Assembly (NCBI GenBank): GCA_963383645.1
Contig: OY726567.1
Location: forward strand, 71,632,947-71,696,946
Length of the DNA: 64,000 nucleotides
Direction: 5' to 3'
Source of the DNA: Muscardinus avellanarius
Taxonomy: Eukaryota > Chordata > Mammalia > Rodentia > Gliridae
This document shows, in pieces, positions 55,477 to 57,240 of this stretch. The position numbers and the translations under genes are program-made. The notes beneath the pieces are model-generated. The model worked only from the letters and a program-made list of their open reading frames with translations, had not been told where the DNA came from and searched no databases. Position 1 is the stretch's first letter. Each line of letters begins with the position of its first letter.

Positions 55477-55680
55477 ACTGGGCATGGTGGCACACGCCTG
55501 TAATCCCAGTACTTGGAAGGCTGAGCCAGGAGGACAGCGGGTTTGAGGACAGCCTCAACAAGTAGTGAGACGCTCCTCAATCTAGCAAGACCCTATTAAA
55601 AAAAAAAAAAATTTTTTTATTAAAAGAACTGGAGCTTTAGCATAGAAGTATTATGTCCCTGGGTTCAAAAAAAAAAAAAA
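55477..55680 (+). mobile_element. B1-dID SINE
   Basis: ACTGGGCATGGTGGCACACG. The linker is A/T-rich with a T-run, and the ID half ends GTCCCTGGGTTC then A14, so the last ID bases are missing. Confidence 0.8.
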
Positions 55681-55826
55681 ACTGGAAACACATGATCATA
55701 CAAAACTTATATACATGAATGTTCAGAGCAGCATTGGCCATAATAGCCAAAAGGTGAAACATCCATCGCATGGTCAATGGATAAACCCAACCTGGTATAT
55801 CTAAGGATGAGTATCCCTCAGCCATT

Positions 55827-56036
55827 CATTCATTCATTCATTCATTCATTTATTGGTGGTACTGGGGCTCCTGGAAACCCTTCTACCTCCGGGCTACACT
55901 CCCAGACCTATTTTTATACTTTTTTATGTGAAAACAGGGTCTCTTAAGCCAGCGCGGCTGGCTTCGAACCTGCGCGAGCCTCCTGTCTCCGCCTCCCAAG
56001 CACAGGATTTACAAGCATGCGCCACCACACCTGGCA
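55827..56036 (-). mobile_element. B1-dID SINE, young subfamily, with 12-bp target-site duplication
   Basis: CCCTCAGCCATT at 55815-55826 and 56037-56048 flanks it inside L1. The antisense tail has become about six CATT units (the tail grew from the target bases). Diagnostic GGTCTCTTAAGCCAGCGC present. Confidence 0.92.
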
Positions 56037-56080
56037 CCCTCAGCCATTTAAATAAAAAATTTTAAAAAAAGGCAGGCCTG

Positions 56081-56736
56081 CTCCGAGGCCGGGATCGGAG
56101 CCTGCCGAGGGGTTAGGCCAGTGCTGGGGCCAGCGAGGCAGGGATCGGAGCCTGCCGCGAGGCAAGGCCGGTGCTGGGGCCTCAGAGGCCGGGATCGGGG
56201 CCTGCCAAGGGGTTAGGCCAGTGCTGGGGCCAACGGCCAGCATCGGAGCCTTCCGTGAGGCAAGGCCGTTATTGAGGCCTCCAAGGCCAGGATCGGAGCC
56301 TGCCGAGGGGTTAGGCCGGTGCTGGGGCCAGTGAGGCTGGGATCGGAGCCTGCTGTGAGGAAGGCCAATGCTGGGGCCTCCGAGGCCGGGATCAGAGCCT
56401 GCTGAGGGGTTAGGCCGGTGCCGGGGCCACTGGCCGGCATCAGAGCCTTCCGTGCGGCAAGGCCACTACTGAGGCCTCCGAGGCCTGGATCAGAGCCTGC
56501 CGAGGGGTTAGGCCAATGCCAGGGCCATCGGCTAACATCGGAGCCTGCCGTGAGGCAAGGCCAGTGCTGGGGCCTCCGAGGCCGGGATCGGAGCCAGCTG
56601 AGGGGTTAGGCCAGTGTCAGGGCCAGCAAGGCCAGAACCGGGGCCTCCCATGAGGCAAGGCTGCTGCTTGAGCCAGCGAGGTCTGATCAGTCCACCGGGT
56701 AGCCAAGCCACAACTGGGGCCGTCAAGAGTGGGATC
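56081..56736. repeat. GC-rich VNTR: 98-bp dimers of related 49-bp units
   Basis: AGGGGTTAGGCC recurs with GGGG starting at 56109, 56209, 56307, 56406, 56504 and 56602 (spacing 98-100 bp). Between these lie related units with GAGGCAAGGCC in place of GAGGGGTTAGGCC, so A- and B-type half-units alternate. Each half contains GGGATCGGAGCCTGCC-like and GTGCTGGGGCC-like phrases. The last units are more diverged. Confidence 0.92.
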
Positions 56737-57101
56737 GGTATTTGCAACGCGGCATGCACAGAGAAATATCGCAGAAAATTAAACCCAGATGCTTCCCCTA
56801 ATCAGCAATAACTAGAAGGAAACGGGCAACAGGAAGTGGTCAAGCTATAGAAAGGGCCCTATAGTGAAGCAATTAAGGTGACCAATCAGAGGGTATGGAA
56901 TAGGGGAGGATGGAGCCTCTTTAAAAAGCAGGAGGTACATAAACAAATGTATCAAAGTTAATCACCAAACAAGCATGGGATCGAGGGAGGGGGAAGGAAT
57001 GGGATGGGGGCTGGATGAGGGCTAATTGGATGATGTGTGCTTGTATATCCTCAAGTCTTATATTCCAATGTGATGTATGATTACAATGCACCAATAAAAA
57101 T
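56081..57101 (+). mobile_element. Composite, ORF-less retroelement (VNTR + unique segment + A-rich 3' end)
   Basis: Three parts are visible. First, a GC-rich tandem array (56081-56736). Second, a unique segment (56737-56970) with GACCAATCAGAGG and CTTTAAAAAGCAGG. Third, a purine/G-rich run (GAGGGAGGGGGAAGGAATGG) and a tail with ATTACAATGCACCAATAAAA, i.e. a polyadenylation signal at 57093-57098. A 24-bp direct repeat ending GGCAGGCCTG lies at 56057-56080 and 57102-57125, within L1 sequence, the signature of target-primed insertion. No ORF of coding character exists. The G-rich run and tail resemble rodent L1 3' UTRs, so it may be an L1 with promoter monomers joined to its 3' UTR by deletion, or a non-autonomous SVA-like family. 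Boundaries are well supported; family identity is open. Confidence 0.7.
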
Positions 57102-57193
57102 AAATTTTAAAAAAAGGCAGGCCTGATCCACACTAGAGCATGGATGAGCCTAGAAATGTCATGCTGCATCAAAGGCGCCATACCTTGTAAGAC

Positions 57194-57194
<1 letters not shown>

Positions 57195-57240
<46 letters not shown>
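57195..57240. repeat. (CA)n microsatellite
   Basis: About 23 perfect units inside the L1 remnant. Confidence 0.95.

What the first reader, a model, noticed from the sequence alone, without database searches (positions are those of the whole stretch)
56057..57125. SVA-like composite retroelement in a rodent intron
A 1.0-kb element has a GC-rich VNTR of about 49-bp units, a unique segment with CCAAT- and TATA-like motifs, a G/purine-rich run and an AATAAA-bearing A-rich end, flanked by a 24-bp direct repeat inside an old L1. No ORF is present. Primate SVA and LAVA (known families) have the same general design: GC-rich VNTR, retroviral or L1-derived 3' part, mobilised by L1. Here the 3' part resembles an L1 3' UTR, so this is either a new non-autonomous family or an L1 whose promoter monomers were joined to its 3' UTR.
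Basis: partly seen in the sequence, partly recalled or inferred. Interest (0 to 1): 0.75.

Follow-up and report, generated by a model that had tools for sequence, protein, structure and literature searches.

The report
Rodent counterpart of primate SVA elements
This is one shortened copy of a jumping element found thousands of times in this rodent genome, built from GC-rich repeats fused to the tail end of a LINE-1 element, much like the SVA and LAVA elements described only from apes.

Summary
Window 56081-57108 is a retroposed insertion: a GC-rich array of alternating 48-50-bp units, an L1-derived 3' end and a duplicated target site. In its own genome (2.497 Gb) the array/L1 junction occurs 7,550 times (<=3 mismatches; control 0), so it is an amplified family, not a one-off deletion. 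The "unique segment" is the last codons of L1 ORF2 plus an L1 3'UTR; its CCAAT/TATA-like words are not a promoter. The window copy is 5'-truncated. Longer copies (12 of 28 fetched) add a ~570-bp block (u1) and a second GC-rich array of 78/95-bp units. Their start points tend to cluster in that unit, hinting at monomer promoters as in mouse L1. Target duplications of >=11 bp occur in 20 of 29 copies, against 34 of 812 mismatched flank pairs. One young L1 with open ORFs has none of these modules; a second L1 5'UTR type does not match them. Best reading: a non-autonomous, L1-mobilised VNTR composite that arose in rodents independently of hominoid SVA/LAVA. L1 mobilisation is inferred, not assayed. 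Repeat libraries (Dfam, Repbase) could not be checked.

The parts
56064..56080 (+). 5' target-site duplication (about 17 bp, AAAAAAAGGCAGGCCTG, after TTTT); the exact 24-bp match 56057-56080 includes 7 bp shared with the element's own 3' end
56081..56745 (+). VNTR: 12-13 units of 48-50 bp, two alternating classes (A, B), degenerate last units next to the L1 part; 5'-truncated in this copy
   Evidence: the 3'-most ~309 bp align at >=0.82 identity in 23 of 28 other copies, the other 5 at 0.52-0.77
56751..56801 (+). remnant of the last codons of L1 ORF2 (family majority reads ...REISQKIKTRCFP*; L103's L1 reads ...SEISQSQKIRNQMLSLICES*)
56802..57108 (+). L1 3' untranslated region with CCAAT- and TTTAAAAA-like words (56882, 56920), G-rich/G4-type run (56977-57003), AATAAA (57093-57098) and A/T-rich end
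   Evidence: 72% alignment over 360 columns to the L1 3' end in L110 that continues from ORF2; G4 motif
57109..57125 (+). 3' target-site duplication
55640..57200 (+). flanks that look like the C-terminal part of an old L1 ORF2, the target (also hit by a SINE at 55827-56036)
   Evidence: weak: (three hits, all LINE-1 ORF2p, E 0.64-1.1), no L1 hit; SINE duplication CCCTCAGCCATT read

Best explanation
A non-autonomous, L1-dependent VNTR composite retrotransposon family. A complete element is: GC-rich array of 78/95-bp units, then a ~570-bp block (u1), then the 49-bp VNTR, then the last ORF2 codons and 3'UTR of an L1, then an A-tail. Proposed cycle: RNA polymerase II starts in a unit of the 5' array. 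The RNA is polyadenylated after the L1-derived AATAAA. L1 ORF2p takes it in trans by its A-tail, nicks TT|AAAA-type sites and copies it by target-primed reverse transcription, often stopping early (5' truncation, occasional 5' inversion). Shown: anatomy, copy number, constant junction, target duplications, A-rich tails, two inversions, absence of the modules from one young L1. Suggestive only: clustered start points. Inferred: promoter function, trans-mobilisation by L1, non-coding status.
For: 7,550 places with the VNTR/ORF2-end junction at <=3 mismatches, 0 in the reversed-pattern control; 1,162 places with the u1/VNTR junction. First-look candidates for the 365-bp tail 2,394; 40 scored, all 97-100% identical over at least 362 of 365 bases. 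12 of 28 distinct copies carry the 5' array and u1; one more (L097) starts inside u1. TSD >=11 bp in 20 of 29 copies against 34 of 812 mismatched flank pairs (one of the 20, L112, is a GT repeat and doubtful). Inverted VNTR pieces in 2 of 29 within 1.6 kb upstream. Starts: 7 of 11 placed starts lie in a 10-nt stretch of the 94-nt unit (21 and 33 of 20,000 random sets do as well). The tail aligns through ORF2 end and 3'UTR to old L1 sequence. Young L1 L113, with open frames of 329 and 1279 codons, has no blastn hit (E<1e-3) with the window element.
Against: No TSD in 7 of 29 copies, and 2 more have only 8 bp. Two of the 11 starts were placed by eye in copies without a TSD; without them 5 of 9 cluster, which 721 of 20,000 random sets match, so the start-point signal is weak. 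The young L1's 3'UTR does not match the composite's, so the partner L1 is not identified. Copies fetched are the best matches to the window, hence biased to young ones. u1 and the 5' array could descend from an extinct L1 5'UTR: the old relative in L095 begins u1 with an AAGATGGC (YY1-like, recalled) word, as L1s here do.
Confidence: 0.8

Rival explanations
1. Internally deleted L1 family ('mini-L1'): the 5' arrays, u1 and VNTR are the 5'UTR of an extinct L1 lineage whose ORFs were lost, leaving 5'UTR joined to the end of ORF2 and the 3'UTR.
For: The 3' part is L1. Tandem promoter monomers plus a tether are the mouse L1 design (PMC9022269, passages). The old relative's u1 repeats carry AGATGGC-like words. 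In L110 three old VNTR-like units lie about 200 bp upstream of a longer ORF2 piece plus 3'UTR, so an older form with more L1 sequence may have existed.
Against: Neither L1 5'UTR type seen here matches these modules: L113 (only 19-20-base A/T-run matches to u1 or flanks) and the L095 inner segment, whose hits in 20 long loci all lie outside the elements. In one search, 36 of 40 scored matches of that segment start at query base 17 or later, that is at or inside the L1 5' end; one of the other four is the query itself. But no L1 of the tail's own lineage with a complete 5' end was read.
Confidence: 0.16
2. One-off chimera or spliced L1 (SpIRE-like) at this locus only.
For: Intra-L1 deletions by splicing are known (PMC5860796, passages).
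Against: 7,550 places with the same junction and 28 fetched copies with the same VNTR-plus-tail anatomy.
Confidence: 0.01
3. Homologue of primate SVA/LAVA (shared origin).
For: Same general design: GC-rich VNTR with ordered units and an L1-derived 3' end as in LAVA (PMC4432496, abstract and opening part).
Against: No Rfam match, 7SL RNA included, at E<=0.1 in one long copy and no hexamer tandem array in another. The families are described as hominoid-specific. No SVA/LAVA sequence could be compared.
Confidence: 0.03

Closest known systems
LAVA (gibbon) VNTR composite retrotransposon
   Same: GC-rich VNTR followed by a 3' part containing L1 sequence, target duplications, many copies (LAVA per PMC4432496, abstract and opening part)
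   Different: No CT-hexamer/Alu-like 5' region found; the 5' part here is a 78/95-bp GC-rich array plus u1; the L1 part starts in the last ORF2 codons; a rodent, not a gibbon; L1 mobilisation shown for LAVA, only inferred here
SVA (great apes)
   Same: Composite, non-coding, central VNTR of 30-50-bp GC-rich units with ordered arrays; copy number of the same order (about 6,000 in human per PMC13174262, passage)
   Different: 3' part is L1, not HERV-K-derived SINE-R; no Alu-like domain detected
Mouse L1 5'UTR (monomers plus tether)
   Same: Tandem units at the 5' end, variable in number (PMC9022269, passages)
   Different: No ORF1/ORF2 downstream; units of 78/95 bp; no match between the modules and L1 L113 of this genome
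SpIRE (spliced integrated L1)
   Same: L1-derived insertion lacking internal sequence
   Different: SpIREs generally cannot retrotranspose again (PMC5860796, passage); this is an amplified family with modules not found in the L1s read here

Membership tests
VNTR composite retrotransposons (SVA/LAVA/PVA/FVA) | central GC-rich VNTR of 30-50-bp units with ordered repeat-unit arrays | tested here: met
   48-50-bp units, A/B order; 250-bp block in register across 20 copies: mean identity 0.872 at shift 0, 0.616 at 49, 0.746 at 98, 0.633 at 147, 0.733 at 196 bp
VNTR composite retrotransposons (SVA/LAVA/PVA/FVA) | shared 5' CT-hexamer plus Alu-like region | tested here: not met
   No Rfam hit (E<=0.1) in long copy L104 5500-8001; no hexamer array in L099 4500-8001; one copy each
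VNTR composite retrotransposons (SVA/LAVA/PVA/FVA) | VNTR homologous to SVA2-derived units | not testable with these tools
   No SVA/LAVA sequence was at hand
VNTR composite retrotransposons (SVA/LAVA/PVA/FVA) | mobilised by L1 in trans, TSD and A-tail | tested here: inconclusive
   TSD >=11 bp in 20 of 29 copies (control 34 of 812), A-rich tails, inversions in 2 of 29; mobilisation itself not assayed
L1 (autonomous) | ORF1 and ORF2 between 5'UTR and 3'UTR | tested here: not met
   Only the last ORF2 codons remain. ORF2 tblastn hits in the 20 long loci fall in flanks; one in L099 runs about 55 bp over the element's 5' edge on the other strand
L1 (autonomous) | 5'UTR shared with this genome's L1s | tested here: inconclusive
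   No hit of the window element to L113. u1, array unit and VNTR absent from 116 kb of flanks except the old composite in L095 and VNTR-like units in L110. L1s of the tail's own lineage with a 5' end were not read
SINE | small-RNA-derived pol III head | tested here: not met
   No Rfam match in L104 5500-8001 at E<=0.1

The most novel reading that the evidence does not exclude
[quoted passage not shown] It spread to thousands of copies although the one young L1 read from this genome carries a different 3'UTR. This would mean that an A-tail and a GC-rich array, not the L1 3'UTR sequence, suffice for hijacking L1, and that SVA-like composites are a recurrent solution rather than an ape peculiarity.
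Probability: 0.6. Interest if true: 0.8.

Novelty: new variant of a known kind. Interest (0 to 1): 0.7.

Why it matters
VNTR composites are described as specific to hominoid primates (PMC4432496, abstract and opening part; PMC7353768, abstract start in a listing). An independently built one with the same design in a rodent gives a natural replicate. Comparing what the two share (GC-rich ordered VNTR, A-tail, L1-type insertion) with what they do not (Alu-like head, retroviral tail) shows which features the L1 machinery rewards. It also puts CpG-rich arrays of variable length at thousands of sites in a second mammalian order.

Tried and rejected
Rejected: CCAAT/TATA as a promoter, or an LTR-derived (SINE-R-like) 3' part; nearly the whole segment aligns to an L1 3' end. 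Rejected: one-off deletion. Rejected: coding VNTR (no Pfam family above cut-off). Rejected: a strongly structured RNA; array and tail fold no better than shuffles, z 0.63 (20 shuffles) and 0.62 (100). Led nowhere: viral contigs (single 15-base matches in 38 and 26 stretches, taken as chance and not looked into; none), bacterial contigs, phages and plasmids, literal sequence search of papers, Pfam and PDB on u1 of one copy (one sub-threshold Pfam row, E 0.1). Not finished, unanswered: VNTR-only genome search, L1 3'UTR search, u1 genome search, VNTR-end count. Not resolved: in the old composite of L095 (minus strand) an L1 5'UTR plus ORF1 start sits in mid-3'UTR.

Full report
What was checked in the window. 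The element is real. TRF finds an array at 56081-56661 with periods 50, 98 and 295. Cutting it by hand gives 48-50-bp units of two alternating classes, degenerating towards ~56745. Alternation is significant (lag-2 identity 0.829 against lag-1 0.716 over the first 11 units, permutation p 0.002). A 24-bp exact repeat flanks the element, and its only two places in the window are these. No other place in the 64 kb matches the array or tail better than E 0.1. The element sits in what looks like the C-terminal part of an old L1 ORF2; database support is weak (three PDB hits, all LINE-1 ORF2p, E 0.64-1.1; no L1 hit).

Family status. After many unanswered attempts, the window's own genome (G000, 2.497 Gb, 104 contigs) was searched with 56737-57101: 2,394 first-look candidates, of which 40 were scored, all 97-100% identical over at least 362 of 365 bases. 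A 35-base pattern across the VNTR/L1 junction occurs 3,797 + 3,753 = 7,550 times with up to 3 mismatches, 0 times for the reversed control.

Anatomy of other copies. I fetched 20 copies with short flanks and 20 with about 8 kb; 12 are in both sets, so 28 different copies plus the window were used. All come from the 40 best matches, and 12 of the long ones were chosen because they had shown extra 5' sequence. In all 28 the tail is present from query base 1-3 on. Twelve of the 28 carry, upstream of the 49-bp VNTR, a ~570-bp block (u1) and up to five units of a GC-rich array with 78- and 95-bp periods; one more, L097, starts inside u1. VNTR length in the 12 runs from 854 to 2,494 bp, median 1,074. 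Nine of them, with target duplications of 13 bp or more, measure 1.86-3.54 kb. The u1/VNTR junction pattern occurs 1,162 times genome-wide, against 7,550 for the 3' junction; the patterns differ in length, so the ratio is only a hint that most copies are 5'-truncated. The 3'-most ~309 bp of the array align to the window copy at 0.82 or more in 23 of 28 copies and at 0.52-0.77 in 5. A 250-bp block gives mean identity 0.872 in register, 0.746 at a 98-bp shift and 0.616 at 49 bp over 20 copies.

The 3' part is L1. In L110 an ORF2 stretch runs straight into a sequence that aligns to tail positions 15-365 at 72%. L103's L1 aligns over 182-365 at 67% and L099's over 123-342 at 69%, both just after ORF2. 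L072 (the same place as L079) has a 77% neighbour without a detected ORF2. In the family majority the tail reads ...REISQKIKTRCFP*, and L103's L1 reads ...SEISQSQKIRNQMLSLICES*. So the VNTR is joined to the last codons of ORF2, and the CCAAT- and TATA-like words are 3'UTR sequence. The L110 piece starts near ORF2 codon 1142 (L113 numbering), and three VNTR-like units (73-77%) lie about 200 bp upstream of it. It may be an older composite with a longer L1 part, or a chance neighbour.

Signs of L1-type insertion. With a fixed rule, 20 of 29 copies have a duplication of 11 bp or more; pairing 5' and 3' flanks of different copies gives 34 of 812. One of the 20, L112, is a GT repeat and is doubtful; 2 have 8 bp and 7 none. 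Many duplications start with A after T, as expected of L1 endonuclease (sequences; judged by eye). Two of 29 copies have an inverted VNTR piece within 1.6 kb upstream. Because other copies end in AATAAAAATAAATT(TT)A(n), 7 of the window's 24 repeated bases match the element's own end, leaving a 17-bp duplication at TTTT|AAAAAAA.

Start point. Of 12 long copies, 11 starts could be placed in the 94-base array unit, two of them (L095, L102, without a TSD) by eye. Seven of 11 lie within a 10-base stretch; 21 and 33 of 20,000 random sets do as well. Without the by-eye starts it is 5 of 9, matched by 721 of 20,000. This hints that transcription starts inside array units, as in mouse L1 monomers (PMC9022269, passages seen). 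No promoter test exists.

Is it simply L1? A young L1 (L113; open frames of 329 and 1279 codons, stop to stop) shares no blastn hit at E<1e-3 with the window element and has a different 3'UTR; u1 matches it only in a T-run. A second L1 5'UTR type, found inside an old composite in L095, has 8,864 first-look candidates; of 40 scored, 36 matches start at query base 17 or later, at or inside the L1 5' end, three at 9-10, and one is the query itself. That segment hits none of the 20 long elements. u1, the array unit and the VNTR are absent from 116 kb of flanks, except for the old composite in L095 and the VNTR-like units in L110. The rival that these modules were once an L1 5'UTR stays open, because no L1 of the tail's own lineage with a 5' end was read.

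Age. Among 29 tails, divergence from their majority is 0.5-1.9%, the window copy 1.4% plus a 2-bp deletion; mean pairwise 2.1%. These are among the 40 best matches and therefore biased to young copies. An old composite in L095 (VNTR 74%, u1 72%, tail parts 80% and 86% to the window family) shows that the family is much older than this burst.

Comparison. VNTR composites (SVA, LAVA, PVA, FVA) are described as hominoid-specific and share a CT-hexamer/Alu-like head (PMC4432496, abstract and opening part). That head was not found in the copies tested, so this is not filed as a member, but it looks built and spread like LAVA. Dfam groups LINE-dependent non-SINE elements as a mixed class that includes SVA (PMC7805219, passage). 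Four paper searches showed no VNTR composite outside primates among the rows listed: 25 of 123, 15 of 16, 15 of 140, 29 of 29; titles and abstract starts only, open-licence papers only. Whether repeat libraries already hold this family is unknown.

Noticed in passing
L095:4900-1386 (minus strand): Old diverged composite: u1-like blocks in tandem (149-bp period), SINE, VNTR, tail first half, then an L1 5'UTR plus ORF1 start (~980 bp), then tail second half; chimera or nested insertion, only case seen.
   Followed up: partly
L095 about 5250-4890 and 4100-3765 (minus strand): Two similar segments (67% over 134 bp), both ending in an A-run, flank the old u1 array; origin unknown, could be LTR-like or a duplication.
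   Followed up: partly
L110:5308-6311: Three VNTR-like units (73-77%), about 200 bp of other sequence, then ORF2 from about codon 1142 on and the 3'UTR: perhaps an older composite with a longer L1 part.
   Followed up: partly
G000: PF02994 gives 38,950 first-look candidates; well over 100 of the 150 scored show an open frame of 329 codons, nearly all of these with the same score, so this genome seems to have had a recent L1 burst, unlike the ground squirrel, reported as quiescent for LINEs and/or SINEs (PMC5857283, passage).
   Followed up: no
L105 about 6330: A composite copy whose 5' flank ends ...CAATGCACCAAT, so it seems inserted in the 3' end of another L1-type tail.
   Followed up: no
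window 55815-56048: A B1-like SINE with its own 12-bp duplication CCCTCAGCCATT ends 32 bp upstream of the element in the same L1-like remnant.
   Followed up: partly
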